A stretch of DNA of 64,000 bases. Origin: Solimonas sp. K1W22B-7. Its GTDB lineage: Bacteria > Pseudomonadota > Gammaproteobacteria > Nevskiales > Nevskiaceae. Shown piece by piece: positions 12,248 to 57,450 of this stretch. Each line of letters starts with the position of its first letter. The first letter of the stretch is position 1. The notes under the pieces are model-generated. The model was not told where the DNA came from. It worked only from the letters and a program-made list of their open reading frames with translations, and searched no databases. Made by a program: the position numbers and the translations under genes. The DNA lies in the NCBI RefSeq assembly GCF_003428335.1, contig NZ_CP031704.1:4030001-4094000 (forward strand), written 5' to 3'.

Positions 12248-12391
12248 GGGTTCCTCTGGGAAAGCAGCGCCGCCAGGCGGAATGGATCATCCGCAAGCCT
12301 AGATTACGGCGTACCCGTCACCGCCAATATGCCCAGGCGTCCTGCTCTTCGTCCCGAACGTCCCGGAATCGCCAGAGCACTTGACCCTCGA

Positions 12392-12421
12392 TATAATTGA
12401 TGTCAGTGTATTGACATCAAT
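12392..12421 (+). promoter_or_regulatory. P450 promoter with perfect 10-bp dyad operator
   Basis: A TATAAT box at 12392-12397 overlaps the left arm of a perfect inverted repeat at 12396-12421: ATTGATGTCA, a 6-base spacer (GTGTAT), then TGACATCAAT. A weak -35 (TCGCCA) lies 17 bases before TATAAT. The dyad covers the region around the start point, so a bound protein would block transcription. The P450 gene starts about 90 bases downstream. Confidence 0.65.
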
Positions 12422-12509
12422 ATTCGCAGCTTTGCAGGATGGCCGCTCGCCGGCGCCCTGTTCGCGCCTGCTGCCTTGCCAGCGATCCCAGACTCAAGCG
12501 GAGCAACCC

Positions 12510-13721: not shown

Positions 13722-13752
13722 CCCCTCCCCCATTTTTCGCGAAGAGATTGCG

Positions 13753-14073
13753 ATGGCGCATGTGACCTACATTACCTTCCACGGCAAGGAACAGACCGTC
13801 GAGCTCGGCTCGGGCGTGTCGCTGATGGAAGGGGCGATCCAGAACGACGTCGAAGGCATCGAGTCGATCTGTGGCGGCAACTGCTATTGCGGCATGTGCC
13901 GCGTCTACGTCGCGGAAGCCTGGCGCACGCGTGTCGGCGCAGCCGGAGACTTCGAACTGCCGGTACTCGAAGGCCTGGGCGAAGAACAGCCCGGCGCCCG
14001 CCTGGCCTGCCAGATCCAGGTTTCGGACGCGCTCCATGGCCTGGTCGTCCACCTGCCCGAAAAGCAGGGTTGA
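13753..14073 (+). CDS. [2Fe-2S] ferredoxin, putidaredoxin type
   Basis: A 106-residue electron carrier. The ligands C40, C46, C49 and C86 have the spacing of putidaredoxin. It lies 31 bases after the P450 gene and very likely feeds it. No ferredoxin reductase is adjacent; the only one in the window is at 39328-40551. Confidence 0.93.
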   Translation: MAHVTYITFHGKEQTVELGSGVSLMEGAIQNDVEGIESICGGNCYCGMCRVYVAEAWRTRVGAAGDFELPVLEGLGEEQPGARLACQIQVSDALHGLVVHLPEKQG

Positions 14074-39327: not shown

Positions 39328-40551
39328 TTAGCGACTTAGTTCGGACAAGGGAATGGCCTCATCCGCGATCCTTCCCGGGTCGACCCTCAAGCCGCCGCCG
39401 ATGGCGCGCCGCGCGAACAGATGATCCTGCGGCCGGTTGAGGCTGTCGGCCGCGATCATCCGCCCGGCAAGGAAGTAGAAGACCGTGAACGCCCCGAATG
39501 CGGGATCGCCGCGCAAGACCAGGTGGTCGTGTGGCGCCGAGATACCAGCGATCTGCAGCTTGACGTCGTATTGGTCCGACCAGAACCAGGGCAAGGCCCG
39601 ATAAGGCTTCGTCGCCGCACCGCACAGCGTCGCGGCCGCCGTTCGCGCTTGGTCCGCCGCGTTCTGCACCGACTCCAGCCGCAGGCGCGTACCGGTCCAG
39701 ACACTCGGATGATTCGCGCAGTCGCCGGCGGCCACAATGCGCGGATCGGAGCTGCGAGCGCATTCGTCGACGACGATGCCGTCCCTCACCTCGAGCCCGG
39801 CGACCTCGGCCAGCGCCGTGTTCGGCAGCAGGCCGATGCCGACGAGAACCAGGTCGGCGGCCAGACGCGTGCCATCGGCCAGCACCACCGCACTCACCTG
39901 CGGCATGCCTTCCAGTCCGACCACCTGCACGTTCTTGCGCAGCGTCACGCCGGCGGCGCCATGCAACTTCTCGAAGAAATCCGATACCGCGGGAATGGTA
40001 ACGCGGGACAGCAGCCGATCCTGCGCTTCCAGCACCGTCACCTGCAGGCCGGCGCGCACCGCAGTCGCCGCCACCTCCAGTCCGATGAATCCGCCGCCGA
40101 TGACCACCAGACGCTTGCCGGCGGACCAGTAGTCGCGCATCCGCCGCACGTCGTCGATCGTCCGCAGCGAAAAGACATTGTCCGCTCGTGCCTCGGGCCA
40201 TGGCAGTGCACGATTGCGTCCGCCAGTCGCGATCGCCATGCGGTCGTAGGCAATGGACGACCCGTCCTCAAGCTGCAAGGTTCTGTTCCGGCGATCGATG
40301 CCGCTTGCCCGAACACCGCCGCGGAAATCGATCCCGGCCTCCCGCAGCCGCTGCCCCGACACCAGACTGAGCCGCTCCTCAGGCAGTTCGCCGGCGAGAT
40401 AGGCCTTCGACAGCGGCGGGCGCTGATACGGCATGTGAGTCTCGTCGCCGATCAGCGTGATGCGGCCGCCGAAGCGCAGCTTGCGCAGCTCCGTGGCAAT
40501 CCCGCATCCGGCCTGTCCCGCTCCGACAACGACGATATGTTCCGCGTTCAT
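39328..40551 (-). CDS. Ferredoxin reductase, putidaredoxin-reductase type
   Basis: A 407-residue FAD- and NAD(P)H-dependent reductase of the class that feeds [2Fe-2S] ferredoxins. FAD site G10-A-G-Q-A-G15, YQRPPLSKAYL, NAD(P)H site VIGGGFIGLE near residue 150 and AAGDCANHP near 290. The C-terminal domain has the PWFWSDQYDVKLQIAG pattern of this family. Last gene of the isomerase-dehydrogenase-ligase series on this strand, 92 bases after the ligase. It could serve the ferredoxin at 57100 or the P450/ferredoxin pair at 12.5 kb. Confidence 0.9.
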   Translation of the reverse strand: MNAEHIVVVGAGQAGCGIATELRKLRFGGRITLIGDETHMPYQRPPLSKAYLAGELPEERLSLVSGQRLREAGIDFRGGVRASGIDRRNRTLQLEDGSSIAYDRMAIATGGRNRALPWPEARADNVFSLRTIDDVRRMRDYWSAGKRLVVIGGGFIGLEVAATAVRAGLQVTVLEAQDRLLSRVTIPAVSDFFEKLHGAAGVTLRKNVQVVGLEGMPQVSAVVLADGTRLAADLVLVGIGLLPNTALAEVAGLEVRDGIVVDECARSSDPRIVAAGDCANHPSVWTGTRLRLESVQNAADQARTAAATLCGAATKPYRALPWFWSDQYDVKLQIAGISAPHDHLVLRGDPAFGAFTVFYFLAGRMIAADSLNRPQDHLFARRAIGGGLRVDPGRIADEAIPLSELSR

Positions 40552-40643: not shown

Positions 40644-42215
40644 TCAGGAAACGCGGCGCGAAACGCCAGCCCAGTACGGCTCGCGCAGCCGGGCCTTGAG
40701 AATCTTGCCGGCACCGTTGCGCGGAATCGCATCGACCCGGCTGATCGACCGAGGGACCTTGAATCCGCCGAGATGACGCCGGCAATGCTCCATCAGCTGC
40801 TCCTCGTCGAGTTCCTCGCCGGCGCAGACGACGATGGCCTTCACCGCCTCGCCCCAGCGCTCGTCGGGAACGCCGATCACCGCCGCGTCGGCTACCTGCG
40901 GGAAGCACAGCAGCACCTCTTCCACCTCGGTCGAGGCCACGTTCTCGCCCCCGGACACGATGATGTCCTTCAAGCGGTCGACGATGTGCAGGTAGCCGCT
41001 GCCGTCGAGATACCCGGCGTCGCCGGTGAACAGGAAGCCTTCGCGCAGGGCTTCCTGCGTGGCGTCTGCGCGCTTCCAGTAGCCCGCCATCACCTGCGGG
41101 GCACGCACGCAGATTTCGCCGACCTGGCCGCGGCCGAGTTCCATGCCGTCGCCATCGACGATCCTGAGCACGGCGCCGGCCACTGGCCGTCCCGCCGAGC
41201 CGAGCAGCTGCGCCCGCTCGCCATCCAGCGCGCGGCGGTGATCCTCGGCATCGAGCACCGAAATGACACTGTGCGTCTCGGTCATGCCGTAGATCTGCAC
41301 GAAATCGCAGCCGTAGCGCTGCGCGGCGGCGCGCAGTGTGTCCTCGGTGACTGGCGAAGCGCCGTAGATGATGCTGCGCAAACCATCGAAATCGCGGCGC
41401 CTGCCGCCGCAGGCACTAAGGCAGGCGCGGATCATCGCCGGGACCAGCACCGCATGCGCCACATTGCCGCAGGCCATCAGGTCCTCCGTGACGGCCGGAG
41501 AGAATTCCCGCCGCAGCAACAGGCTGGCCCCCCGGTACACCGACCACAGCGACGCGAAAATTCCGCCGACGTGAAACAACGGCAAGGCCTGGTAGACGCT
41601 TTCGCCGGGCCGCGGCATCAGGTCCACCGCTGCCATCAGCCCGAACTGCTGACCGAGGCAGTTGTGCTCGGTCAGCACCACGCCCTTGGGGCGGCCGGTC
41701 GTACCGGAGGTGTAAACCTGCAGGTAGGCACGCCCGATGTCGGCCGGCGGCGGACGGTCTTCATCGCCCTGCGCCTGCAGCCAGGACTCGAACGAACCCC
41801 AGCCTTCTTCCGCCGGACCCAGCAGCAGCCGTGCCGCCGGCGCGACCCGGACCGGAATCCGTCCCACCAGCGCCGACGCGAACTCCGCCTCGGCGATCAC
41901 CGCGCAACAATCGCTGTCCTCGAGTATCCACCCCATTTCCGACGGCGCAAGCCGGTGGTTGACCGGCACGATCACCGGGCCACCCTTCAGTGCCGCCAGG
42001 ATCAGCAACAGCACCTCCGTGCGGTTGCGCGACACCACGGCGACACGATCGGTCTCGCCGAGCCCCAGAGCGCGGAAGCCGTTGATCAGCCGGCGCACGC
42101 GCTCGGCCGCTTCGGCATAACCCATGCTTCCGAGTTCGCTATCCACCAGCGCCCGCGACGGCGCATGCTGGACGTGATGGTCGAAAGCGCTGAAGGCGCG
42201 GAACGGAACGACCAT
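40644..42215 (-). CDS. AMP-dependent acyl-CoA ligase
   Basis: A 523-residue adenylate-forming enzyme. P-loop YTSGTTGRPKG at residues 168-178, YGMTETHSV as the adenylate motif, and the GDAGYLDGSGYLHIVDRLKD region with the catalytic Lys in NGAGKILKARLR near the C-terminus. It would activate the carboxylic acid from the aldehyde dehydrogenase encoded just upstream, three bases apart, for beta-oxidation. Related ligases act on medium-chain, aryl or cyclic acids. Confidence 0.9.
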   Translation of the reverse strand: MVVPFRAFSAFDHHVQHAPSRALVDSELGSMGYAEAAERVRRLINGFRALGLGETDRVAVVSRNRTEVLLLILAALKGGPVIVPVNHRLAPSEMGWILEDSDCCAVIAEAEFASALVGRIPVRVAPAARLLLGPAEEGWGSFESWLQAQGDEDRPPPADIGRAYLQVYTSGTTGRPKGVVLTEHNCLGQQFGLMAAVDLMPRPGESVYQALPLFHVGGIFASLWSVYRGASLLLRREFSPAVTEDLMACGNVAHAVLVPAMIRACLSACGGRRRDFDGLRSIIYGASPVTEDTLRAAAQRYGCDFVQIYGMTETHSVISVLDAEDHRRALDGERAQLLGSAGRPVAGAVLRIVDGDGMELGRGQVGEICVRAPQVMAGYWKRADATQEALREGFLFTGDAGYLDGSGYLHIVDRLKDIIVSGGENVASTEVEEVLLCFPQVADAAVIGVPDERWGEAVKAIVVCAGEELDEEQLMEHCRRHLGGFKVPRSISRVDAIPRNGAGKILKARLREPYWAGVSRRVS

Positions 42216-42218
42216 GGC

Positions 42219-43670
42219 CTAGCCCCCCATCAGGCCGATCAGGCGCCGGGCAAGGTTGCCGTAGGGCGGGTACAGCAGCTTCAGGCCAGTGAACGAACCC
42301 AGTCCACGCTGCATGAACACCGGCTTGAGATGGGAAAACGTCTCGAAGCCTTCCTGGCCGTGGTAGCGGCCGAAACCGCTGGCACCCACGCCACCGAAAG
42401 GAAGATCGACCTGCAGGAACTGCAGCATCACGTCGTTGATCGACACGCCGCCCGACACGGTCCGATCCAGGACCGCGCGCTGCCGTTCCGACGAGCGTCC
42501 AAAGTAGTAGAGCCCCAGGGGGCGCTCGCCGGCGTTGACGCGCCGGATCGCATCGTCGAGGCCGTCGTGCTCGAACACCGGCAAGACCGGCCCGAAGATT
42601 TCCTCGCGCATGATCCGCGAGTCGGGCGGCGGATTGATCACCAGGGTCAGCGGGAACTTGCGCGCCGCCGCGTGATCGGGCGTGTGCTGCTCGATCTCCT
42701 GGATCACGGCACCCGCCTCGCGTGCACCCTGTACCAGCGACTGCAGCCGCTCGTAGGCGCGGGGATCGATCACCGAGCTATAGCTGCTTTCGCCGGCACC
42801 GCGCGGGAAATGCGCCAAGTAGTGCCGCGACAGCGCGCTGGCGAATGCCGCCAGGCTGCCCTTGGGCAGCAGGACATAGTCGGGCGCCACGCAGGTCTGC
42901 CCGGCATTGAAGGTCTTGCCCCAGAGGATGCGGTGCGCCGCTTCCTCGATCGGGTAGTCGGCGTCGACGATGACCGGGCACTTGCCACCCAGCTCAAGCG
43001 TGACGGGAGTCAGGTTCTGCGCGGCGGCAGCCATCACCATCCGTCCCACGCGGGTCGACCCGGTGAACAGCAGGTGATCGAACGGCAGGCTGGAGAACGC
43101 GGCGGCGACGCCGGCATCGCCGCCGATGATTGCGATCTCGCTCTCGTCGAAGGCCAGCGCGATCAGCCGCTTCAGGGTCTCGGTGGTTGCCGGGGTCAGT
43201 TCCGACATCTTGACCATGGCGCGGTTGCCGGCCGCCAGGGCCGAGGCCAGCGGCGCTACGGCGAGATTCACCGGATAGTTCCACGGCGCCATCACGCCGA
43301 CCACGCCCAGCGGTTGCGGCAGCACGCTATTGGAGCCTGGCAGGAACCAGATCGACGTCGAGCGCCGGCGCGATCGCATCCAGCGGCGCAGGTTGCGGAT
43401 CGCATAGTGGATGTTGGCGACGGTGCCGCCGATCTCGGCAATGCGCGATTCCTCGGTCGAGCGATGACCGAAATCCTGCGCCACCGCCTGGATGATCGCC
43501 GGCGCATTTTCGACGATCAGCGCATGCAGGCGCCGCAGCCGGTCGATGCGCACCTGCAACGGCGGATTGCTGTCGCGCTCGAAAGCCATGCGCTGCGCAT
43601 TGAATATCGCTCGCAGGGAGGATTGCCTCGTCGAACCCGCAATATCCCTTTCGATGGAAACTGCACTCAT
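42219..43670 (-). CDS. Aldehyde dehydrogenase, coniferyl aldehyde dehydrogenase type
   Basis: A 483-residue NAD(P)-dependent ALDH. Catalytic Glu226 in LELGGK, Cys260 in GQTCVAPDYVL, the cofactor motif FTGSTRVG, and an N-terminus (SLRAIFNAQRMAFERDSNPP) typical of the CalB/long-chain family. The start MSAVSIERD follows AGGAG. The ligase begins three bases after its stop, so product acid would pass directly to CoA activation. Confidence 0.9.
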   Translation of the reverse strand: MSAVSIERDIAGSTRQSSLRAIFNAQRMAFERDSNPPLQVRIDRLRRLHALIVENAPAIIQAVAQDFGHRSTEESRIAEIGGTVANIHYAIRNLRRWMRSRRRSTSIWFLPGSNSVLPQPLGVVGVMAPWNYPVNLAVAPLASALAAGNRAMVKMSELTPATTETLKRLIALAFDESEIAIIGGDAGVAAAFSSLPFDHLLFTGSTRVGRMVMAAAAQNLTPVTLELGGKCPVIVDADYPIEEAAHRILWGKTFNAGQTCVAPDYVLLPKGSLAAFASALSRHYLAHFPRGAGESSYSSVIDPRAYERLQSLVQGAREAGAVIQEIEQHTPDHAAARKFPLTLVINPPPDSRIMREEIFGPVLPVFEHDGLDDAIRRVNAGERPLGLYYFGRSSERQRAVLDRTVSGGVSINDVMLQFLQVDLPFGGVGASGFGRYHGQEGFETFSHLKPVFMQRGLGSFTGLKLLYPPYGNLARRLIGLMGG

Positions 43671-43751
43671 TTTCCGGCACTCCTGCTTTGCGATGATGCG
43701 CACACTCTCGCGGATGCCGCCGGCCACTTCCCCGATCGAAAGGTCTGCCCA

Positions 43752-43777
43752 TAAAAAAAACCCAGTCGATGGGCTCG
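43752..43777 (-). terminator. Terminator between isomerase and dehydrogenase genes
   Basis: Leftward, AGCCCA-TCGAC-TGGGTT forms a 6-bp stem with a G-T pair, followed by a run of eight T (the A-run at 43753-43760). It lies between the end of the isomerase-like gene (43846) and the start of the ALDH gene (43670). Confidence 0.65.
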
Positions 43778-43845
43778 TCCTGGGCCAAGTGGGGGAAGGG
43801 ATTCCTGCAGGCGGCAAAGGCAAGCCAGCCGCCGCCGGCGACGCT

Positions 43846-44319
43846 TCAGTCCAGCGGCTTGGCGCGCAGCAGCAACACCACCGCCACGGACAGGGTCACG
43901 GCGCCCAGCAGCGCCGGAAAGAAAGCCACCGCGCCTGCGAGGCTGGCTTCGCCCAGGCGATTGGCCTGCAGCGTCAAGCCGTGGTTCGGCGCGAACATGC
44001 CGAACAGGTAGAAACAGAAGTTGCCCCAGACCGCGACGATCGTCCCCCAGCAAACCCAGGCCGCATCGCTGCCTCGCAGCGAGAACCAGCGCAGGCAGGC
44101 CCCGAGCAGGATCGCCATCAGCCCGTTCATCATCATTCCTAGATGCACGATGCGCCAACCCTGGGGGGTTCCCGGCACGGCTACGTCGATGAACACCGGC
44201 AACGGCGACAAGGAAATCGCGCCGATCATGGAGAACAGCAACACGAAGCCGCCGAGCAAGGACACCAGCATCGCGGCAAGCCCATGCTTGATCAGCCGGG
44301 TCGAATGTAGGTAATGCAT
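43846..44319 (-). CDS. Styrene-oxide-isomerase-like membrane protein
   Basis: A 157-residue protein with four predicted transmembrane helices, the size and topology of StyC. StyC converts styrene oxide to phenylacetaldehyde by a Meinwald rearrangement and binds haem b. Two segments match StyC: VPGTPQGWRIVH with GMMMNGLM, and FYLFGMFAPNHGLTLQANRLG (core FYLF-x2-F-x-PN-x-GLT). H59, N65 and Y104 fall at the positions I recall as the haem ligand and catalytic residues in StyC (H58, N64, Y103). The start follows GGAG; the longer ATG at 44331 is less likely. Its neighbours supply the next two steps, aldehyde to acid to CoA ester. No StyAB epoxidase is present, so the substrate may be another epoxide. 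Confidence 0.75.
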   Translation of the reverse strand: MHYLHSTRLIKHGLAAMLVSLLGGFVLLFSMIGAISLSPLPVFIDVAVPGTPQGWRIVHLGMMMNGLMAILLGACLRWFSLRGSDAAWVCWGTIVAVWGNFCFYLFGMFAPNHGLTLQANRLGEASLAGAVAFFPALLGAVTLSVAVVLLLRAKPLD

Positions 44320-44531: not shown

Positions 44532-47312
44532 ATGTCCAGGAAAAGCACGGGGGCGCTGCCCGAAAGCCTGATCACGACCAAGCTGAATCCACCCGAACTG
44601 GATTCCCGGCTGATTTCGCGCAAGGCGCTGGTCGATCGACTGCTCAACGGCGAGGCGAGGCGCACGGTAATCAGTATTGTCGCCGCGGCGGGCTCCGGAA
44701 AGTCGACCCTGATGGCCCAGCTGCGCCAAGCCCTGCGGGATGGCGGAGTCAGCACCTGCTGGATCAGTCTCGACGCGGACGACGACAGTCCCGCGGCCTT
44801 CGCCACCTACTTCATCTCCGCACTGGCGGCACTGGACATGCCGGTAGCCCAGCGCGAACTGGCACTGCAGCGTGCCAATCCGGCACGCGATTTCGAGGTG
44901 CTGTTCGACAACCTCATCGCGCAGATTTCCGCCCTGCGGGGCGAATCCGCGATCTTCCTCGACGACTTCCAGCACATCCGCGACGAGCGCGTCCTGCGCT
45001 TCATCAACAAGCTGATCGCGCACGCGCCGCCATCGGTCCGCACGATCATCGCCAGCCGCGCGCGCCTGCCCCTGGACCTGGCCCGCCAGCGCATCTCCGG
45101 CCAGCTCGCCGAGGTCGAACAGGACGAGCTCAACTTCGATTCCACGCAGGCCGCCGATTTCCTGCTGCGCTCGCACGAGCTGAGCCTGCAGCCGGAGGAC
45201 CTGGCCACGCTGCTGACGACCACCGAGGGCTGGCCGACCGGCCTACAGCTCGCCGCGCTGGCGCTGCGCCGGCATCGCGGTCCGGCGAGCGAACTGATCA
45301 ACCAGTTCTCCGGACGCGACAAGGATCTCACCAGCTATCTGGTCGAGGCCGTACTGCGCAGCCAGCCCGAGGCCGTGCGCAAGTTCCTGCTGCTGACCGC
45401 GCCGCTGCGGCGCATGTCGCCCGACCTGTGCCAGGCCGCCTCCGGCCATCCGAACAGTGCCGAAATGCTGGCCTACCTGGCCCGCAGCAATCTCTTCGTG
45501 ATCGCGCTGGACCGCAACGAGCAGTGGTACCGCTACCATCATCTGTTCGCCGAGTTCCTGCAGAACGAACTCAAGCGCAGCAATCCGGAGGCCTTCCTGC
45601 AGGTCTGCGATCACGCCGCGCAATGGTGCGAAGCCCAGGGCCAGACCACCGAGGCGATCCAGTACGCGCTGGACGGCCACCGCTACGAGAAGGCCAGCGA
45701 TCTCATCGCCGACCGTGCACCGATGGTCTCGCAGGCCCATGGCGACCACTACACGATCCTCGACTGGATGCGACGCCTGCCAGCCCCGTACCACGAGCGC
45801 CGGCCCGAGATCGGCCTTAGCCATGCGTGGTCGCGTGCGTTCTCGCGCGACACCGACCTCGCCATGGCTCTCACCGACCGCGTCCTGCAGCGTCTGCGCG
45901 ACGACAACGACGGCTGGCGACTCAGCGAGGCCGAAAGGCATCGCCTGAAGCTGCTGGCGCGCGTGATCCAGGCGATCGCCAAGGCCTGCTCGGACGAGAT
46001 CGAGGAATGCATCTCCCGCAGCCAGGAGCTGCGCAAACAGATTCCGGAAAGCGAGCCATTCCTGATCGCCTCGATCTGCAATTGCATTGGATACAGCCAC
46101 TTCGCCCGGCGCGAATTCGAAAGCAGCGCACGCGCCGCCGCCGACGCCTACCTGTACGGGCATCGCGCCGGCGCGGCCTATGCCACGGTGTGGGCCGATT
46201 TCCTGCACGGGGTCGCCGATGTGGAGTTGGGGCGCCTGCGCACTGCTCAGGAGCACGGGCACCGCGCGGAGAACGTCGCCGGCACCGAGAGCGGCACCGC
46301 CAAGAGCTATTCGGCCGCGCTGGCCGCCCTGCTCAATGCCGACATCTCCACGCAGCGTTGCGAGTTCGACCAGGCGAAGACCTACATGGAAACGGGCCGC
46401 TCGTTCACCGCGCTGTTCGGACCCTTGGAACCGCTGCTGGTGGCGATCCGCAACGACGCACGCATCCACGCCTGGCGTGGCGACCTGGACGCCGCGCGGC
46501 GTGTGCTGATGCAGGGACAAGACACGGCTCTGAGTACCAGCCAGCCGCGGCTATTTCTCAACCTGGCGATCGAGGAAGTGACCCTGCAGCTGCGGGCCGG
46601 CGATATTTCCGGCGCGCTGCAGACCGCGCAGCGCGCACGCCTGCGCGACGACAGCAGTTCGGTACGCAACGCCGACAGCTCGCGCGGCTCGCGCGACGCC
46701 CTGCAACTGATGGAAGCGCGCCTGCTGCTCGCCGAGGACAACCCGGAGGGCGCATTGCGTTGCCTCAACCTGCTGCAGAACTCCCCCGCGGCAAAGGCCG
46801 GCGGCGGTGTCAACCTGACCCAGAGAACCCTCAAGGCCGTCGCGCTGTGGCAGAGCGATCGCGGAGCCGAGGCCGTGCGGGAACTGGATCGGGCCTTGAG
46901 TCTCGGCACGCCGGAACTGCATACCTATCCCATCGCCTCGGCCGGCCGCGCGCTGCTGCCGATCCTGCAGGCCATCGACCAGCGCCGCGCCGACACAGCG
47001 GCAGGCGGCGACCTGCAGGCCAAGCGCGACATGGAGGGCCGGTTGATCTCGCTGCTGACCGGCGAAAAACCGAATCGCGGTGGCACCCATCCCGACGCGG
47101 TCGATCCCGGAATATCCTCGGAGGCCCTGACCCTGCGCGAAATCGAACTGTTGCGCCTGGTCGAGGCCGGCCTCGCCAACCGCCAGCTTGCCGATGCCCT
47201 GCTGATCTCCGAAGCCACGGTCAAATGGCATCTGCACAACATCTACTCCAAGATCGGCGTCCGCAACCGCACCGCCGCCGCGACCCGGGCGCGGGAGCTG
47301 ACGCTGATCTAG
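44532..47312 (+). CDS. Large LuxR-family regulator, MalT/STAND type
   Basis: A 926-residue ATP-dependent activator. NTPase P-loop G54-S-G-K-S-T59, a Walker B-like FLDDFQHI near 140, a helical TPR-like region through the middle, and a C-terminal LuxR helix-turn-helix (ALTLREIELLRLVEAGLANRQLADALLISEATVKWHL, split here as LTLREIELLRLVEAGLAN and LLISEATVKWHLHN). Members integrate a small-molecule inducer and ATP. Start follows AGGAG. It is divergent from the isomerase-ALDH-ligase series and probably activates it and the operon to the right. Inducer unknown. Confidence 0.92.
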   Translation: MSRKSTGALPESLITTKLNPPELDSRLISRKALVDRLLNGEARRTVISIVAAAGSGKSTLMAQLRQALRDGGVSTCWISLDADDDSPAAFATYFISALAALDMPVAQRELALQRANPARDFEVLFDNLIAQISALRGESAIFLDDFQHIRDERVLRFINKLIAHAPPSVRTIIASRARLPLDLARQRISGQLAEVEQDELNFDSTQAADFLLRSHELSLQPEDLATLLTTTEGWPTGLQLAALALRRHRGPASELINQFSGRDKDLTSYLVEAVLRSQPEAVRKFLLLTAPLRRMSPDLCQAASGHPNSAEMLAYLARSNLFVIALDRNEQWYRYHHLFAEFLQNELKRSNPEAFLQVCDHAAQWCEAQGQTTEAIQYALDGHRYEKASDLIADRAPMVSQAHGDHYTILDWMRRLPAPYHERRPEIGLSHAWSRAFSRDTDLAMALTDRVLQRLRDDNDGWRLSEAERHRLKLLARVIQAIAKACSDEIEECISRSQELRKQIPESEPFLIASICNCIGYSHFARREFESSARAAADAYLYGHRAGAAYATVWADFLHGVADVELGRLRTAQEHGHRAENVAGTESGTAKSYSAALAALLNADISTQRCEFDQAKTYMETGRSFTALFGPLEPLLVAIRNDARIHAWRGDLDAARRVLMQGQDTALSTSQPRLFLNLAIEEVTLQLRAGDISGALQTAQRARLRDDSSSVRNADSSRGSRDALQLMEARLLLAEDNPEGALRCLNLLQNSPAAKAGGGVNLTQRTLKAVALWQSDRGAEAVRELDRALSLGTPELHTYPIASAGRALLPILQAIDQRRADTAAGGDLQAKRDMEGRLISLLTGEKPNRGGTHPDAVDPGISSEALTLREIELLRLVEAGLANRQLADALLISEATVKWHLHNIYSKIGVRNRTAAATRARELTLI

Positions 47313-47397: not shown

Positions 47398-48300
47398 ATG
47401 AAGCCCGTTTCGGAACACCCGATGGACGCCTTTCCGGTGCGTCCGCTGCAGTTCCAGGTCGAGAAGATCCGCTCGCGCGATCTGGTCTGGAGCCGCACCT
47501 GCCCGGAATTCTCGATGTTCATCAATGCGCTGGGCATCCATGTGCCCTATTTCGAACGCTACCTGGTCCGCGCGCTGACCAAGGCACGCACACAGATCAA
47601 GGACGAACGCCTGCTGCGCGATATCTCGGCGATCATCGGACAGGAGGCCCACCACGCGAAGAACTTCATCCATCTCAACCAGGTGCTGGCGCTGCGCTAT
47701 CCCAGGGTCGCCCAGATGGAAGCGGCAGCGAGGGACTACTTCGCCGAGCACGCGAAGAAGGACTCGCTCAGGCAACTGGTCGGCTACACCGCCGGCTACG
47801 AGACCTTCACCTTCCTCGCCGGCATGATCATCCTGCAGAACTACGATCGCTGGTTCGCCGACTCCGAGCCGGTGATCAAGGCCATGTGGGTCTGGCACCA
47901 GGTCGAGGAGGTCGAGCATGGTGCGGTGGCCTTCGAGGTCTACAAGCACCTCTACGGCGACGACGAGCTGTATCGCAAGCGGATGGTGCTGAAGGCCCTG
48001 GCGCACATCGCCGGCGAAACCATCAAGGCCTATACCCACATGGCGCGGGTCGAGGGCTGGTTGCGCAACCCGTTCCGCGGCGCCGTCCGGCTGGGCTTCT
48101 GCGGGCTCATGCTGCTGCGTCTGCTGAAGAGCGCGCTGCCGGTGTTCCGCAAGGACTACCACCCGCGCCGCCATCCGCTGGTCACCACGCAGCAGAACCC
48201 GATCCAGATCGCCTGGCGCCGCTATGAAAGCCGCGGCGGCGACGTGCTGGAGATCGACCGGGCGAAGATGGCCCGGATCATGGGCGTGGAGCCGGCCTGA
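47398..48300 (+). CDS. Predicted metal-dependent hydrolase (PF10118, ferritin-like di-iron)
   Basis: A 300-residue helical protein of the COG3687 group. Two metal-ligand pairs are visible: E83-A-H-H86 and, after E135 in GYETFTF, the E170-E-V-E-H174 sequence. The spacing fits a four-helix di-iron centre. The family is annotated as a hydrolase but is not biochemically settled; a di-iron oxygenase role is equally possible. Strong SD GGAGGAG. It is convergent with the DUF1329 gene, 6 bases apart. Confidence 0.82.
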   Translation: MKPVSEHPMDAFPVRPLQFQVEKIRSRDLVWSRTCPEFSMFINALGIHVPYFERYLVRALTKARTQIKDERLLRDISAIIGQEAHHAKNFIHLNQVLALRYPRVAQMEAAARDYFAEHAKKDSLRQLVGYTAGYETFTFLAGMIILQNYDRWFADSEPVIKAMWVWHQVEEVEHGAVAFEVYKHLYGDDELYRKRMVLKALAHIAGETIKAYTHMARVEGWLRNPFRGAVRLGFCGLMLLRLLKSALPVFRKDYHPRRHPLVTTQQNPIQIAWRRYESRGGDVLEIDRAKMARIMGVEPA

Positions 48301-48306
48301 GCGGGC

Positions 48307-49686
48307 TCACACCGCGCCCAGGCGCATCAGCGCCGCACTGGTCAGGTACTTCTCGTAGATGCCGGCATCGTTGACGCTGGTCGCGTGTCCGCCGGAGATC
48401 GCGCGCACCTGCTCCAGCCGCGTCATGCGCCCGGTCTGGATATCGAAGGCATGCACATGCCCCCAGGACCAGTACGGATGCGCGCCATCCATGAAGGACT
48501 TTGCGCCCGCCTCGTAGAGGCCGTAGGCGCCGTCGAACGAGCGATAGGCCTCGCCACGGCGGTCGTAGGACACCATGGCGATCGGCAGCTGCGTGCGTGC
48601 ATCGAACCAGACGCGCTTGCGGCTGATCGGTGCGCGCGGAAACTTCACCGGCTCGGCTTCCACCGCGATCGCCTCGGGCACCAGTTCGACCGTGGTGTCC
48701 CAGAACGTCTTGCCCTTGGGCCCACCGTGGACGCGGTGCTCCCAATTCGGATGCTGGGCATTCCACGCACCGGATACGGCCGCCAGCATCGGACCGCGGC
48801 CGACGATGCGATAGTTGCCCCAGGTATACAGCGGATCGCCCGCCGTCCAGGCATCCGAGAGATACAGCGTCGAGCCCGGGATCAGCGGCTCGAAACGCTG
48901 GTCGGTGGGAAACTGGCGGATGCGCTTGTAGGCCGGCAGGTAGCCGTAGAGATCCGGAAAGCGATGCTGGTCGTAGGGCCAGACGTTCAGGAACGACGTG
49001 CCCTTGATGCTGTCGGGCGTCTGGAAGAAGATCGACTGATACCGCAGCTTGTCCTCCTTGCCCGGCCAGTACGGCCGCGGCTGCAGCGACACGCGGCAGA
49101 CCGGCGACAGCTCCGACCAACCCGCCTGGTACTGGAACAGCACGTCCCCCTCCGCCGACAGGTCGTATTCCTTCACCGCGTAGAACGAAGCATCGTGGCG
49201 CCCCCAGCTCAGCGTCAGCCCGGCGAACAGCTCCAGCGCCGACTGCGCGGCGGGGAACGGATTGCCGCCGATCCACGGCCTGCCCTCCGCCGTCACCACG
49301 TTGCCGTCCGCTGCGAAACGCGCCTGGCCCTTGTTGCGCAGCGTGGCCTCCACATACTCCCAGGGGCTCAGGCGCAGGATCTCCGTCGTCGTCCTGGCCA
49401 CGCGCAGTCGCCGCCCCATGTCACGAACCTGCAGATACTTGATAGGCTCCAGCAGGTCCTTGACCCACTCGACATTGGCCGCCGTGATCTCGTCGCCGGT
49501 CTTGATCCTGCCGCGCGTGTACATCTCGATCGACAGCAGTTCCTCGGGGTAGGCGGCAGCGGCATCGCCGCTGGCGGCGATCGCATCCCATAGCGGCATC
49601 AGCACACCTGCCGCGGCGACGCCGCGTGCGGTCTGCGCCAGGAAGTGACGCCGGCTACAGGCGCGGTCGTATCGCAGGAACTTCAT
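48307..49686 (-). CDS. DUF1329 outer-membrane-associated protein (second copy)
   Basis: A 459-residue DUF1329 protein with a twin-arginine-like start CSRRHFLAQTARGVAAAG and conserved segments SIEMYTRGRIKTGD, PWIGGNPFP and RFPDLYGYLPAYKRIRQFP. About 460 residues is the usual length. A paralogue lies at 53009; the two bracket the YCF48 and DUF1302 genes. The family accompanies DUF1302 and RND proteins, probably in moving hydrophobic substrates across the envelope; the mechanism is unknown. Confidence 0.9.
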   Translation of the reverse strand: MKFLRYDRACSRRHFLAQTARGVAAAGVLMPLWDAIAASGDAAAAYPEELLSIEMYTRGRIKTGDEITAANVEWVKDLLEPIKYLQVRDMGRRLRVARTTTEILRLSPWEYVEATLRNKGQARFAADGNVVTAEGRPWIGGNPFPAAQSALELFAGLTLSWGRHDASFYAVKEYDLSAEGDVLFQYQAGWSELSPVCRVSLQPRPYWPGKEDKLRYQSIFFQTPDSIKGTSFLNVWPYDQHRFPDLYGYLPAYKRIRQFPTDQRFEPLIPGSTLYLSDAWTAGDPLYTWGNYRIVGRGPMLAAVSGAWNAQHPNWEHRVHGGPKGKTFWDTTVELVPEAIAVEAEPVKFPRAPISRKRVWFDARTQLPIAMVSYDRRGEAYRSFDGAYGLYEAGAKSFMDGAHPYWSWGHVHAFDIQTGRMTRLEQVRAISGGHATSVNDAGIYEKYLTSAALMRLGAV

Positions 49687-49764: not shown

Positions 49765-51906
49765 TCAGAACTGATAGGTCAGGCGCAGCGTGAATTCATC
49801 TGCGAAACCCAGCGAGGACACCACGTTGTCGTTGGGATTACCGCCCAGGTCGCCGTTGATGTAGGTGTAGAACCCCTCGACCGTCACGTCGCCGCTGGGC
49901 TTCCAGCGCAGGCCCGGCTGCAGCAGCGCCCCGCCCTTCAGATCCACCAGCGTGGCGAACTCGACCTGGTAGATCTGGTTCGGGAAGGGCTGCAGGAAGG
50001 CCATCACCAGGTAGTTCGAACCGCCCGATTGGCCCGGCGACTGTTCCTGCTCGCTGCCGCCGTAACCCTTGAGTGAGCGGCCCACCAGATCGCTCTTGGT
50101 CTTGTGCATGCCCTGGAACACGATATAGGTGCCGGGGAACTCGTTGAAGAAACGATGCCACTTGTCCATCACCAGCGCGACGGTCAGCTCGCGCTCCTTC
50201 AGGTAATTGCGGCTCAGCGAGGGGTTGGTGAATCTGCGGTCCGGCACGTACATCGCTTCCAGGTTGAAGATCAACTGGTCGAAGAAGCTGCCGGGCTCGC
50301 CCTCGTTGACGTAGCTGATGCCGCCGCCGAGATTGGTCTCCTGGAAATATTCTCGCGCCAGGTGACCACGCAGACTGCCGCCGGCTGCCATGAAGAAGGT
50401 GTTGAGCTCGTGCGTCGCTTCTTCATAGTTGCCCGCGACCGAAGCATAGAGATCCTGCACTGCCGGAAACTCCAGGACCGCCGAGTTCAGGCCGTCGGTG
50501 CCCGCGAGCCGCGCATCTGCGGCGTAGTAGAACCACTCGTTGGCGGAATACACGCCACCAGGCGCCACCTCGAACGGCGTATGTGCCAGGGCCTCGCCGG
50601 TGCTGCCGTACTGACCCGACACAGCGTAGCTGGCATTGACCAGCCCGCCCAATCCCGAGTTGGGCAAGTCGCGGTTGACACCCGACTCGGTCCAGCGGAA
50701 TACGCCATCCGGGTTGAAGCGCCGCGCCGCCACCGCCTGGAAGCCCCACTGGCCGTAGTCGCCCTTCAGGCGCAGACCGTAGCTGATCTCGTTGTCGTAC
50801 TTGCCGGCCGCGTACATGTCGTGAATCGTGAACTGTGTCGGGATGATGTTGTAGGGCGTGTTGGGATTGGGGTAGATCGTCGGCTGGAACTTCTGTACGT
50901 AGGCATCCGCGAGGATATTGTCGGTGGCCTGGAAGGTGGCGCGGATCGCCAGCGAGGGCACGCGCTTGTCGCCGTACTCCTCGACCGCGCGGTCGAGGAT
51001 GAAGTGACGCCGGTAGTCGATGCCGTCCGGCACATCGAGCACCCGGAAGAAGATCGCCTGCCCCCAGGCGATCTGCTGGTTGCCGATGCGAACGTTGAGC
51101 GGACCATTGGTGTAGTCCAGCAGCAGCGCCGGAAAATACACCATGTAGTCGTCGCCGGACCATTCCAGCGGATTCGGACTCTTGTCGCCCTCCACGCGGT
51201 ACTGGAAGTAGTTCGGTGCGCCCTGGTACAAGGCCGGGTCGCCGCCGGCGATGCCACCGCCCTGCAGGTCGGCGACGCTCGCCGCATCGAACTGGCTGTA
51301 GTGCCCCGGATCGAAGAGTCCGCGTATACGGCCGATGATCGACCAGTTCGAGTTGAACTTGACCGCCACCTCGGTTTCGGCGCGCACATAGTGCATGTTG
51401 AAGGTATTGCCGGATTCCGGCACCGGGCGGCGCACCTCGTCCTGAAAGCCCAGGACCGTCAGCGGCAAGGTATTCCAGGTCCCGATGTCGGGCAAGGGCA
51501 GGCCCAGCCCGCCGGTGATGTTCCCCAGCAGCGCCGGCGGCGCATACGCCGTGCGCTGTATCGTGCGCTTGTTGAACACATTGCCGCGCTGGTTGTTGGG
51601 ATTCTCGGAGCCCGTGGAAATCGCGAACTCCGGACGGATGAAGCCACCGAAGCTGATGTCGAAGTCGCTGCCGAACAGCCCCGCGAAGAACCCTTCGTCC
51701 GGTGTGGATTCGACCGCCTGCTCCTCGATCGGCTGCGGCTCCGGCACCTGCGGCTCGGTCGCAACCGCTTCGACCGCCTGGGACTCGGTCGCCTGCACTT
51801 CAGCCGGAGGGGTCTCCCCCTGGGCCTGAACCGCGCCGACGGCACAGCCCAGCAGGATTACCGCTCCCCAGTGACGCCGCCCCTGCATATGTTCGATGCT
51901 GCGCAT
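49765..51906 (-). CDS. DUF1302 outer-membrane protein
   Basis: A 713-residue beta-barrel-like protein. Signal peptide ending VQA near 30, then a 40-residue Glu/Pro/Val/Gln-rich tether, then the DUF1302 barrel starting DFDISFGGFIRPEFAIS and ending in Phe (RLTYQF), as expected of an outer-membrane protein. SD AGGAG. The tether is longer than in typical members. Neighbours are YCF48 and two DUF1329 genes; a channel for a hydrophobic compound is the working idea. Confidence 0.88.
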   Translation of the reverse strand: MRSIEHMQGRRHWGAVILLGCAVGAVQAQGETPPAEVQATESQAVEAVATEPQVPEPQPIEEQAVESTPDEGFFAGLFGSDFDISFGGFIRPEFAISTGSENPNNQRGNVFNKRTIQRTAYAPPALLGNITGGLGLPLPDIGTWNTLPLTVLGFQDEVRRPVPESGNTFNMHYVRAETEVAVKFNSNWSIIGRIRGLFDPGHYSQFDAASVADLQGGGIAGGDPALYQGAPNYFQYRVEGDKSPNPLEWSGDDYMVYFPALLLDYTNGPLNVRIGNQQIAWGQAIFFRVLDVPDGIDYRRHFILDRAVEEYGDKRVPSLAIRATFQATDNILADAYVQKFQPTIYPNPNTPYNIIPTQFTIHDMYAAGKYDNEISYGLRLKGDYGQWGFQAVAARRFNPDGVFRWTESGVNRDLPNSGLGGLVNASYAVSGQYGSTGEALAHTPFEVAPGGVYSANEWFYYAADARLAGTDGLNSAVLEFPAVQDLYASVAGNYEEATHELNTFFMAAGGSLRGHLAREYFQETNLGGGISYVNEGEPGSFFDQLIFNLEAMYVPDRRFTNPSLSRNYLKERELTVALVMDKWHRFFNEFPGTYIVFQGMHKTKSDLVGRSLKGYGGSEQEQSPGQSGGSNYLVMAFLQPFPNQIYQVEFATLVDLKGGALLQPGLRWKPSGDVTVEGFYTYINGDLGGNPNDNVVSSLGFADEFTLRLTYQF

Positions 51907-51956: not shown

Positions 51957-52934
51957 TCACTCGAATCGCAGAATCTTCCCGGCGTTGCCCACGACCAGCG
52001 GTGTCCCGCCTTCGGGACGTGCCACGCCGACATACCAGGACGAGGCCACCGCCGCGTCGGTGAAACGGCGCCAGGTCTTGCCGTCGTCCCGGCTGAAGTA
52101 CATGGCATGCATGGCAGTGATCAGCACATGCCCGTTGGCAGCGGAACTCACGCCGAGCAGGATCGACTTGGCGGCCAGACGCGTCGACCTCCACGACAGA
52201 CCCCCGTCGCTGCTGCGCAGGATGGTTCCGTCCTGCCCGACGGCATAGCCGATACCGTCGGCGCGGATATCCAGCGCGAACAGCGACGCATCGTCCTTGT
52301 GATTGACCGGATCGCCCTTGTGCAGCAGCGTCCATTGTCGGCTGTCCGCGCTGTAGCGCAGGATCGTGCCGAGCTCGCCGACCACCGTGGCGGTGCCCTG
52401 GTCGTCGAGTTGCACCGCGTACAGGTGCGGCTGGAAGCCCTCGCCCTGCGCGGCCATGAAGCTCATCCAGTCGGGCGCGATCGAGGTCCAGCTGCGGCCA
52501 CGGTCCGACGAGGCCAGCACCGTGCCGAAGGACCCCACGGCAATCGCATCGCCCCTGGCGTTGATCGACACCGACAGCAGGCGCTCCTGGGTGCCGCTGG
52601 CCATCTGCGCCCAACCGGAACCACCGTCACGCACCAGGATCAACCCCATCTGCCCCACCGCCACACCGAGCGACTCGCGGACATCGACGCCGAGCAATGT
52701 CAGCGGCGAAGGCGATGCTGCCCTTGTCCAGGTCGCGCCACCGTCCTGCGTCGCCTGGATTTCACCGCCTGCGCCGACCGCTACGCCCACCTTGCCGTCG
52801 AACGCCACGCCCAGCAGGGCCTGATGGAGCGTGCCGCCGGTCACCTGCGTCAGCTTCGGCGCCGCAGATGCCGCGCAGATGCCCGCAAGCGATAGCACGA
52901 CGGCGCAAAAGGCCGTCCGTAAATCTCGATTCAT
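51957..52934 (-). CDS. YCF48-related exported beta-propeller
   Basis: A 325-residue protein with a signal peptide ending SAAP and seven or so repeats of the AVGxxGxIxxTxDGGxTW type (AVGAGGEIQATQDGGATW, ILRSSDGGLSW), as in photosystem II stability factor YCF48 and BNR-repeat proteins. In bacteria this family sits next to DUF1302, DUF1329 and RND genes, suggesting it helps assemble or stabilise that envelope machine. SD GGGAG. Confidence 0.85.
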   Translation of the reverse strand: MNRDLRTAFCAVVLSLAGICAASAAPKLTQVTGGTLHQALLGVAFDGKVGVAVGAGGEIQATQDGGATWTRAASPSPLTLLGVDVRESLGVAVGQMGLILVRDGGSGWAQMASGTQERLLSVSINARGDAIAVGSFGTVLASSDRGRSWTSIAPDWMSFMAAQGEGFQPHLYAVQLDDQGTATVVGELGTILRYSADSRQWTLLHKGDPVNHKDDASLFALDIRADGIGYAVGQDGTILRSSDGGLSWRSTRLAAKSILLGVSSAANGHVLITAMHAMYFSRDDGKTWRRFTDAAVASSWYVGVARPEGGTPLVVGNAGKILRFE

Positions 52935-53008: not shown

Positions 53009-54391
53009 TCAGACCGATCCCAGGCGCTGGATCGCCTGCTGCGTGAAGAAGCGGTTGTACATCTCGTCGCTGTCGCCACGGAGCAGGCTCTTGTAGCCGC
53101 CGGTGATCTCCTCGGCATGCTCGGCGCGGCTCATGCGGTTGGCCTGGATGTCGTGGCACATCACGTAGGTCCAGGACCATTCGGGCGTCTTGCGGCCCGG
53201 TTCCAGCATCACCTTGTCGCCGTCGACCATCTGCCCGGAGCCGGTTTCGAAATTAACCCAGGGTTGGCCGTTGCGGTCGTAGCGGACCTCGCCGCAGTAC
53301 ATGCCGTTGCGGACGTCGATCCACGCGCGCTTCTTGCTGCAGGGCGCACGCGGATAGCCGGTCGGCTCCATCTCGACTTCGAGAACCTCCGGCGCCAGCT
53401 CGTACTCGGTGTCGAAGAAGGTCAGGCCCTTGGCGCCGCCATGCACGCCCTTCTCCCAGTTCTTGCTCTTGCCGGCCCAGTTGCCGGACCAGGCACCGAG
53501 CATCGGCTTGCGCGAAATGACCTTGAAGTTGCCCCAGGTCAGCATCGGATCGCCGGCATACCAGGGATCGGTGAGGAACCAGGTCACGCCCGGGATCAGC
53601 GGCTCGAAGCGCTGGTTGGTAGGGAACTGGCGCACACGCTTGAACTGCGGCAGGTAGCCGTAGAGATCCGGATACTTGCGCTGGTCGTAGTACCAGATGC
53701 TGAGGAAGGAGCTGCCAGCCACGTCCTGCGACGAGGTGAACAGCACCGTCTGGTAGCGCATGAACTCCTTCTTGTTCTGGAAGATCTTGCCGTCCATGCG
53801 ATTGGTGGCCTGCAGCTCGGCCCAGCAGAAGTCGTACTTGTAGGCGATCTTGCCTTCTGGCGAGATGTCGGTCTCGCGGATCGCGTACTGGCAGTAGTCG
53901 TGCTTGCCCCAGCTCAGCGCCAGGTTGCCGATCGCCTCCTGTGCGGTCTTCGGATCCAGGAACGGCGCGCCACCCATCCAGGGGCCGCCGTCCGGCCCGT
54001 AGATGTTGCCGTCGGCACCGAACTTGGCCTTGCCGCGGTTGCGCAGGCTGGCCTCGAGGAAGCTCGCCGGGAACATGGTCGTCACGTCGCGCGTGGTCGC
54101 TCTGATCTTGATCTTGCGGCCGAGATTCTTGATCTGCAGATAGACGATGGGGTCCAGAAGTTCCTTGACCACCTCGACGTTGGCCGAGGTGATCATGTCG
54201 CCGGTCTTGATCTTGCCCTTGGTGTACATCTCGATCGAGGTGAGTTCGTCGGGATAGACCTTGCCGATGTCGGCCGCTTCACCCAGTACCGGCCACAGCG
54301 GTGCCAGGACACCGGCAGCGGCAGCGCCCTTGGCCGCCTTCTCCAGAAGCATGCGACGGCCGTAGTTGAAATCGTATTTCTTGATCCACAT
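53009..54391 (-). CDS. DUF1329 outer-membrane-associated protein (first copy)
   Basis: A 460-residue paralogue of the protein at 48307: YGRRMLLEKAAKGAAAAG start, SIEMYTKGKIKTGD, PWMGGAPFLDP, KYPDLYGYLPQFKRVRQFP. It is the second gene after the RND protein in transcription order, 68 bases after it. SD GAGGAGAG. Having two DUF1329 genes in one operon suggests two different roles or substrates. Confidence 0.9.
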   Translation of the reverse strand: MWIKKYDFNYGRRMLLEKAAKGAAAAGVLAPLWPVLGEAADIGKVYPDELTSIEMYTKGKIKTGDMITSANVEVVKELLDPIVYLQIKNLGRKIKIRATTRDVTTMFPASFLEASLRNRGKAKFGADGNIYGPDGGPWMGGAPFLDPKTAQEAIGNLALSWGKHDYCQYAIRETDISPEGKIAYKYDFCWAELQATNRMDGKIFQNKKEFMRYQTVLFTSSQDVAGSSFLSIWYYDQRKYPDLYGYLPQFKRVRQFPTNQRFEPLIPGVTWFLTDPWYAGDPMLTWGNFKVISRKPMLGAWSGNWAGKSKNWEKGVHGGAKGLTFFDTEYELAPEVLEVEMEPTGYPRAPCSKKRAWIDVRNGMYCGEVRYDRNGQPWVNFETGSGQMVDGDKVMLEPGRKTPEWSWTYVMCHDIQANRMSRAEHAEEITGGYKSLLRGDSDEMYNRFFTQQAIQRLGSV

Positions 54392-57099: not shown

Positions 57100-57450
57100 C
57101 TACTCGGCCTCGGCGACGACGACCGTAGCGCCGTCGAATTCCCGGGTCACCGCGATCTGGCAACCCAGCCGCAGGCCCGCCTCGGGCGCCCCCAGGAACT
57201 GCAGCAGCTCCTGTTCTGCGAGGTCAGGCGGGCGGGCGGTTCTCGCTACGATCGGATCGACACGGATGCGGCAGGTACCGCAGGCGCAATTGCCGCCACA
57301 GTCGCCACCGATACCGGCGATCAGATGGCTGGTCGCCGCCGACATCAATGTTTCGCCTACTGCAGCGCTGATGTCGTGCGCGCACCCGGCGCTGTCGACA
57401 TAGCGGATGCGCACGGTTTTACCTGCGACAGCTTCGATTGAATCGGTCAT
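57100..57450 (-). CDS. [2Fe-2S] ferredoxin, putidaredoxin type
   Basis: A 116-residue ferredoxin. Ligands C51, C57, C60 and C97 have the putidaredoxin spacing; GGDCGGNCACGTCRI is the cluster loop. The start MTDSIEAV follows GGAG. First gene of the operon that leads into the RND and DUF genes, so it presumably feeds an oxygenase for the same compound; that oxygenase is not in the operon. The reductase at 39328 is the nearest candidate partner. Confidence 0.9.
   Translation of the reverse strand: MTDSIEAVAGKTVRIRYVDSAGCAHDISAAVGETLMSAATSHLIAGIGGDCGGNCACGTCRIRVDPIVARTARPPDLAEQELLQFLGAPEAGLRLGCQIAVTREFDGATVVVAEAE

What the first reader, a model, noticed from the sequence alone, without database searches (positions are those of the whole stretch)
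42219..44319. A styrene-oxide-isomerase-like enzyme beside aldehyde dehydrogenase and CoA ligase, without a styrene monooxygenase
The 157-residue membrane protein at 43846 keeps the size, four-helix topology and two long motifs of StyC, including H59, N65 and Y104 at the positions of the StyC haem ligand and catalytic residues. Downstream on the same strand lie ALDH and CoA ligase, the two steps that follow an aldehyde. This is the logic of the styrene pathway (epoxide to aldehyde to acid to CoA), but no StyAB is present and the surrounding genes are those of a hydrophobic-compound degrader. The true substrate may be a terpene, alkene or aryl epoxide not yet described for this enzyme class.
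Basis: partly seen in the sequence, partly recalled or inferred. Interest (0 to 1): 0.78.

Follow-up and report, generated by a model that had tools for sequence, protein, structure and literature searches.

The report
Epoxide isomerase with candidate diiron epoxidase
A bacterial gene cluster holds a relative of the styrene-pathway enzyme that turns epoxides into aldehydes, and in many bacteria this relative travels with an unstudied iron-type protein that is probably the missing enzyme making the epoxide, which would define a new route for breaking down alkenes.

Summary
The 157-aa protein at 43846-44319 (-) belongs to the styrene oxide isomerase (SOI/StyC) superfamily: its AlphaFold2 model superposes on the solved SOI (TM 0.84, rmsd 1.9 A), with H59, N65, N100 and Y104 kept. 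It is not StyC proper: 96 bits against a cut-off of 150, and a separate clade, "T1". ALDH, CoA ligase and a ferredoxin reductase follow on the same strand.

"Without a monooxygenase" is half right. StyA was not found in the genome, but 3 kb away lies a PF10118 "predicted metal-dependent hydrolase" (47398-48300). Its orthologue (58-81% identity) is near SOI in 20 of 24 named loci and occurs in 21 of 21 genomes of the order with T1 SOI, against 2 of 64 without. PF10118 keeps E, ExxH, E, ExxH in 60 of 60 distinct sequences checked; its model resembles ferritin-like diiron proteins, at marginal scores. In one relative each, a flavoprotein/flavin-reductase pair or a diiron hydroxylase stands near SOI instead.

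I propose PF10118, with ferredoxin and reductase, as the epoxidase: alkene to epoxide to aldehyde to acid to CoA ester. Neighbouring AmeABCD-like genes hint at an apolar hydrocarbon such as a terpene. No activity is shown.

The parts
43846..44319 (-). SOI-superfamily membrane haem isomerase (T1 clade), 157 aa
42219..43670 (-). aldehyde dehydrogenase (PF00171; start inferred), closest NCBIfam model BenzalDH MdlD (329 bits), StyD models only 144-156 bits; 56-66% identical homologues downstream of SOI on its strand in L006, L008, L017, L020, L067, L072
40644..42215 (-). acyl-CoA ligase (PF00501/PF13193), starts 3 bases after the ALDH stop
39328..40551 (-). ferredoxin-NAD(P) reductase of the HcaD/AndAa type (PF07992 + PF14759; start inferred)
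44532..47312 (+). MalT/LuxR-type regulator (start inferred); homologue in 9 of 24 named T1 loci
47398..48300 (+). PF10118 'Metal_hydrol' protein, candidate diiron epoxidase; E53, E83xxH86, E135, E171xxH174
57100..57450 (-). 2Fe-2S ferredoxin (PF00111), candidate electron donor; homologue directly beside PF10118 on its strand in L006 and L014
54460..56955 (-). MMPL-family transporter, AmeD-like by domain
53009..54391 (-). DUF1329 protein, AmeB-like by domain
51957..52934 (-). YCF48/BNR protein (PF14870), AmeC-like by domain
49765..51888 (-). DUF1302 protein, AmeA-like by domain (start inferred)
48307..49686 (-). second DUF1329 protein

Best explanation
The region encodes an alkene-degradation module built on the logic of styrene side-chain oxygenation but with a different epoxidase. 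NAD(P)H reduces the ferredoxin reductase (39328-40551), which reduces the 2Fe-2S ferredoxin (57100-57450). The ferredoxin drives the PF10118 protein (47398-48300), proposed to be a stand-alone ferritin-like diiron monooxygenase that epoxidises an apolar alkene. The membrane haem protein (43846-44319) then opens the epoxide by Fe(III) Lewis-acid catalysis and a 1,2-shift (Meinwald rearrangement) to an aldehyde. ALDH (42219-43670) makes the acid and the ligase (40644-42215) the CoA ester. Shown here by computation: family and fold of SOI, its separate clade, its linkage to PF10118, and diiron-type ligands conserved in PF10118. Supported but not settled: the ferritin-like fold of PF10118. Inferred: metal content, epoxidation, electron partners, substrate.
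For: (1) SOI identity. (2) Linkage: PF10118 orthologue (58-81% identity) within the held flank of 20 of 24 named loci, including Nevskiales, Zhongshania and Novosphingobium, where the two ORFs overlap (L023). (3) Co-occurrence in the order: 21 of 21 genomes with T1 SOI have the orthologue, against 2 of 64 without; 21 of 22 T1 genes lie within 5 kb of it, 15 within 250 bases; Fisher p 6e-18, not corrected for kinship. Counts (2) and (3) overlap, since many named loci come from the same genomes (duplicates seen). (4) In several Nevskia-type loci PF10118 and SOI are a divergent pair between housekeeping genes that look like mfd and radA (names recalled). (5) The host genome has 11 PF10118 matches; the ten others are only 26-29% identical to the linked one over the aligned parts. 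(6) E, ExxH, E, ExxH kept in 73 of 73 entries, 60 of them distinct (39 orthologues, 21 paralogues); AlphaFold2 pLDDT 84, best structural matches R2, R2lox, CmlI and MMO hydroxylase. (7) Inside the T1 clade L069 has a FAD-type protein plus flavin reductase, and L008 a PF02332 hydroxylase, near SOI instead of PF10118. (8) Other PF10118 paralogues sit beside other SOI clades in 8 of 30 fetched T2/T3 loci; none is within 8 kb of the 9 StyA-linked SOIs.
Confidence: 0.6

Rival explanations
1. PF10118 acts after SOI, not before: a diiron enzyme that oxidises, deformylates or otherwise removes the aldehyde that SOI makes, while the epoxide comes from a monooxygenase elsewhere or from outside.
For: Some ferritin-like diiron enzymes act on aldehydes (a protein with aldehyde-deformylating oxidase activity, 6d9f, is among the Foldseek hits). 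In Nevskia-type loci no window-type ALDH was found near the pair.
Against: In one T1 locus each, oxygenases of other families stand near SOI instead of PF10118, and ALDH plus CoA ligase can already consume the aldehyde in the fuller loci.
Confidence: 0.17
2. One reading: a StyC-type enzyme whose epoxidase is encoded elsewhere; PF10118 is an unrelated neighbour (for example lipid or membrane metabolism).
For: PF10118 is a large paralogous family in these genomes (11 matches in this one); the window also has a P450 with a ferredoxin 30 kb away.
Against: The linked PF10118 is one orthologous group found in 21 of 21 genomes with T1 SOI and mostly adjacent to it; other SOI clades are paired with other PF10118 groups too.
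Confidence: 0.13
3. The T1 SOI has lost isomerase activity and is a membrane haem partner (electron carrier or anchor) for PF10118.
For: D95 is Ala in 29 of 29 T1 sequences and R112 is His in 26 of 29; D95A impairs Pseudomonas SOI (PMC11374702) and R111A weakens Rhodococcus SOI (PMC12502698). Some PF10118-linked T3 copies have lost N99 and Y103.
Against: H58, N64, N99 and Y103 equivalents are kept in 29 of 29 T1 sequences. RoSOI1 D94A kept activity in whole cells (PMC12502698).
Confidence: 0.1

Closest known systems
Styrene oxide isomerase StyC (Pseudomonas VLB120, Rhodococcus 1CP; PDB 8pnu/8pnv, 30tw)
   Same: Fold (TM 0.84), equivalents of haem-ligand His58, Asn64, Asn99, Tyr103; an ALDH follows.
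   Different: 29% identity in the structural alignment; separate clade (100/99 support); D95 to Ala, R112 to His; no StyA found; a different regulator type beside it.
styABCD styrene side-chain oxygenation
   Same: Epoxide to aldehyde to acid logic.
   Different: Candidate diiron epoxidase with ferredoxin and reductase instead of flavoprotein StyAB; CoA ligase in the operon; no PaaA/PaaC (PF05138) match in the genome.
Ferritin-like diiron oxygenases: R2lox, CmlI/AurF type, bacterial multicomponent monooxygenases
   Same: Helical bundle in the model; E, ExxH, E, ExxH with spacing 30/52/36.
   Different: No convincing sequence similarity; no PF02332 hydroxylase among the window ORFs scanned (coupling proteins were not searched for); family labelled 'hydrolase'.
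AmeABCD, proposed apolar monoterpene exporter (Castellaniella defragrans, PMC6394551)
   Same: DUF1302, DUF1329, YCF48/COG4447-type protein and an RND transporter in one cassette.
   Different: Second DUF1329 gene, a leading ferredoxin gene, placed beside SOI/PF10118; no sequence comparison with AmeABCD was made.

Membership tests
Styrene oxide isomerase superfamily | SOI fold, four transmembrane helices | tested here: met
Styrene oxide isomerase superfamily | Haem-ligand His58 and network residues N64, N99, Y103 | tested here: met
   H59, N65, N100, Y104; 29 of 29 T1 sequences
Styrene oxide isomerase superfamily | Ferric haem b at a trimer interface; epoxide isomerisation | not testable with these tools
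   needs expression and assay
StyC equivalog (NF045734) | Score above curated cut-off 150 bits | tested here: not met
   96.2 bits
StyC equivalog (NF045734) | Groups with StyA-linked SOIs in a tree | tested here: not met
   T1 is its own clade (29 rows, 100/99); the 9 StyA-linked SOIs lie in another clade of 11 rows (100/92)
StyC equivalog (NF045734) | Network residue D95 of StyA-linked SOIs | tested here: not met
   Ala in 29 of 29 T1, Asp in 9 of 9 StyA-linked
styABCD pathway | StyA (PF17885) present | tested here: not met
   (no match in own genome, control silent); found in 12 of 85 genomes of the order
styABCD pathway | Phenylacetyl-CoA oxygenase (PF05138) for the product | tested here: not met
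   control genomes ring in 4 of 14
Ferritin-like diiron oxygenase superfamily (PF10118 protein) | Four-helix bundle fold | tested here: inconclusive
Ferritin-like diiron oxygenase superfamily (PF10118 protein) | Six ligands E, ExxH, E, ExxH | tested here: met
   pattern kept in 60 of 60 distinct sequences; metal-site geometry not measured
Ferritin-like diiron oxygenase superfamily (PF10118 protein) | Bound metal pair, O2 activation | not testable with these tools
   needs protein
Bacterial multicomponent monooxygenase | PF02332 hydroxylase subunit | tested here: not met
   the protein matches PF10118 only; PF02332 seen in relatives L008 and L106
AmeABCD-type RND cassette | DUF1302 + DUF1329 + YCF48-like + MMPL/RND in one cassette | tested here: met
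   (domain content and order only)

The most novel reading that the evidence does not exclude
PF10118, an uncharacterised and multicopy 'metal-dependent hydrolase' family, is a new class of stand-alone diiron alkene epoxidases, and SOI-type haem isomerases are their regular partners in several SOI clades, so that Meinwald epoxide-to-aldehyde metabolism goes well beyond styrene (probably to terpenes and other apolar alkenes).
Probability: 0.5. Interest if true: 0.85.

Novelty: new variant of a known kind. Interest (0 to 1): 0.7.

Why it matters
It also suggests that the SOI superfamily is much larger than StyC: 111 matches at E <= 1e-5 in 43 of 85 genomes of one order (the weakest, about 43-60 bits, may differ in function), and the 76 distinct sequences placed on a tree fall into several clades with different oxygenase neighbours.

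Tried and rejected
Own-genome StyA search first gave a silent control; repeated over the order, where it rang in 12 of 85. Sequence profile of PF10118 against the PDB: top hits are eIF3 subunit E (E 0.004) and alpha-actinin, taken as chance helical matches. The PF10118 family search over the order listed only the strongest matches, so the window-type orthologue was sought separately. First conservation table used out-of-frame queries for ALDH, FdR, DUF1302 and BNR; all queries were redone. My first ORF picker hid SOI or PF10118 in some loci behind antisense ORFs (one search ended in an error and its table was made in 44); profile and tblastn searches replaced it. Rows dropped: 11 of 87 SOI rows as identical before the tree; 6 of 53 PF10118 frames by length, among them a second PF10118 gene of L002/L068 that is split over two frames; the second gene of the tandem L031/L033 was not included, so 9 of the 10 other paralogues of this genome were checked. 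Styrene as substrate: disfavoured by lack of a PF05138 match and an ALDH unlike StyD, not excluded. Literature: PF10118 one paper, on lanthipeptide proteases (listing only); COG3687 with 'metal-dependent hydrolase' none; SOI with 'metal-dependent hydrolase' none; IPR016516, COG3687 or UCP07580 none; SOI with diiron one plastic review (listing only); SOI with limonene two papers (listing only). These cover the held open-access library only. The SOI review PMC5874493 was seen in passages.

Full report
Observation. The 157-aa ORF at 43846-44319 (-) is real and is homologous to solved styrene oxide isomerases (E 4e-19 and 2e-16) and to the NCBIfam StyC model (E 2e-27, but 96 bits against a cut-off of 150). 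The Pfam scan gave no match; a Pfam accession, PF26512, is precomputed for its listed relatives. Its AlphaFold2 model (47 sequences, pLDDT 89.8, pTM 0.82) has one PDB match with E <= 0.001, 8pnu (TM 0.84, rmsd 1.9 A over 146 columns). It is the only match to this protein in its genome at E <= 1.

Catalytic residues. In Pseudomonas SOI, H58 binds haem, Y103 hydrogen-bonds the bound inhibitor, N64A and D95A are impaired, and N99A and Y103A are inactive (PMC11374702, passages seen). In an alignment of 76 distinct SOI-superfamily sequences H58 and N64 equivalents are kept in 76 of 76; N99 and Y103 in 29 of 29 T1 sequences. D95 is Ala in 29 of 29 T1 but Asp in 9 of 9 StyA-linked sequences; R112 is His in 26 of 29 T1 and Arg in 9 of 9 StyA-linked. 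R111 of the Rhodococcus enzyme is thought to hold a haem propionate (PMC12502698, parts 1-3 of 5 read, passages). So the pocket is that of an SOI but not of StyC.

Neighbourhood. On the minus strand follow ALDH (43670-42219), CoA ligase (42215-40644, 3 bases later) and a ferredoxin reductase (40551-39328). On the plus strand lie a MalT/LuxR-type regulator and PF10118 (47398-48300). Beyond, on the minus strand, a ferredoxin leads a cassette of MMPL transporter, DUF1329, YCF48-like, DUF1302 and DUF1329 genes, the same domain set as AmeABCD, proposed to export apolar monoterpenes in Castellaniella (PMC6394551, abstract and passages seen). In Zhongshania (L006) PF10118, ferredoxin, MMPL, DUF1329 and a YCF48-like gene follow one another on one strand, while SOI, ALDH and CoA ligase form the divergent arm. 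This fuller set is not general: of 24 named T1 loci the regulator is found in 9, ferredoxin and ALDH in 5 each, CoA ligase in 4, ferredoxin reductase in 3, MMPL in 2 (some loci are short).

Linkage. One genome-contig scan gave 24 loci with a relative of this SOI. A PF10118 orthologue (58-81% identity) is in the held flank of 20 of 24. The four without: L008 and L013, whose genomes have it elsewhere (64% and 66%), and L012 and L017, whose genomes have only paralogues of at most 32%. In Novosphingobium sp. Chol11 the two ORFs overlap (L023). In several Nevskia-type loci the pair is divergent, between housekeeping genes that I take for mfd and radA by recall.

Co-occurrence in the order. Of 85 genomes, 43 have 111 SOI-superfamily matches, in three score tiers: T1 above 200 bits (22 genes in 21 genomes), T2 and T3 below. 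The PF10118 orthologue (E <= 1e-50) is in 23 genomes: 21 of 21 with T1 SOI and 2 of 64 without (G031, G067). 21 of 22 T1 genes lie within 5 kb of it, 15 within 250 bases; the exception is the second T1 gene of G003. Fisher p is 6e-18, but the genomes are related, and several named loci are from these same genomes, so the two counts are not independent. StyA is in 12 of 85; by coordinates 10 of the 12 lie beside a T2 SOI and none beside a T1 SOI. Eight genomes have both StyA and T1 SOI, so T1 is not simply a StyC that lost its partner.

Tree and partner exchange. I fetched 49 regions around SOI matches of the order, plus one (L111) around the G031 PF10118; not all 111 matches were fetched. With the named loci, four plasmid StyC loci and the window this gave 87 SOI rows, 76 distinct. 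In a maximum-likelihood tree T1 is one clade (29 rows, support 100/99): 25 with PF10118 within 8 kb, 1 with a PF02332 hydroxylase (L008, 4-8 kb away on the other strand), 1 with a FAD-type protein and a StyB-like flavin reductase (L069), 2 with none recognised. L069 is sister to L070 of the same genome, which has PF10118. In 30 fetched T2/T3 loci (L077-L106), 8 have a PF10118 paralogue, 8 an unidentified flavoprotein-like gene next door (one tested: weak NAD_binding_8 match only), 1 a PF02332 hydroxylase, and 13 matched none of my queries. Some deep T2/T3 branches are long and their places unsure.

Mechanism. I favour PF10118 as epoxidase because conserved pairing with an epoxide isomerase, diiron-type ligands and, in single cases, replacement by other oxygenases all point there, and because the window supplies a reductase and ferredoxin. 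Confidence: SOI-type isomerase about 0.9, PF10118 epoxidase about 0.6, apolar hydrocarbon or terpene as substrate about 0.45, styrene itself below 0.15.

Novelty. I found no paper in the held library that links SOI to PF10118 or gives PF10118 a function. The SOI chemistry is known; the clade and its proposed epoxidase appear new.

Noticed in passing
L082, L088, L091, L097, L101 (operons); L020, L025 and L002 have related single T3 copies: PF10118 is followed by two tandem SOI-like genes: one (T3) keeps the haem His and N64 but lacks N99 and Y103, the next (T2) has Phe for Y103. This looks like a heteromeric or altered SOI; unexplained.
   Followed up: partly
L077, L079, L080, L081, L085, L092, L095, L100: A T2 SOI clade (8 rows, 99/94) stands directly beside a ~450-aa flavoprotein-like gene (weak NAD_binding_8 match in the one scanned), possibly another epoxidase partner.
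   Followed up: partly
L106 and L008: SOI-family genes near PF02332 diiron hydroxylase genes, suggesting alkene monooxygenase plus SOI pathways.
   Followed up: partly
L002 (4944-6008) and its copy L068: A second PF10118 gene beside a T3 SOI matches in two adjacent frames, so it looks split in this MAG.
   Followed up: no
Own genome, G000:C1:3680234-3682017 (L031, L033): Two PF10118 matches lie in tandem about 240 bases apart; one has an open frame of 726 aa, the other 304.
   Followed up: no
window 12381-14073 (+): A P450 gene with a 2Fe-2S ferredoxin gene, a second possible oxygenase system 30 kb away.
   Followed up: no
L111 (G031:C4): A PF10118 orthologue (64%) in a genome without T1 SOI; none of the other window genes queried matches within the 15 kb held.
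   Followed up: partly
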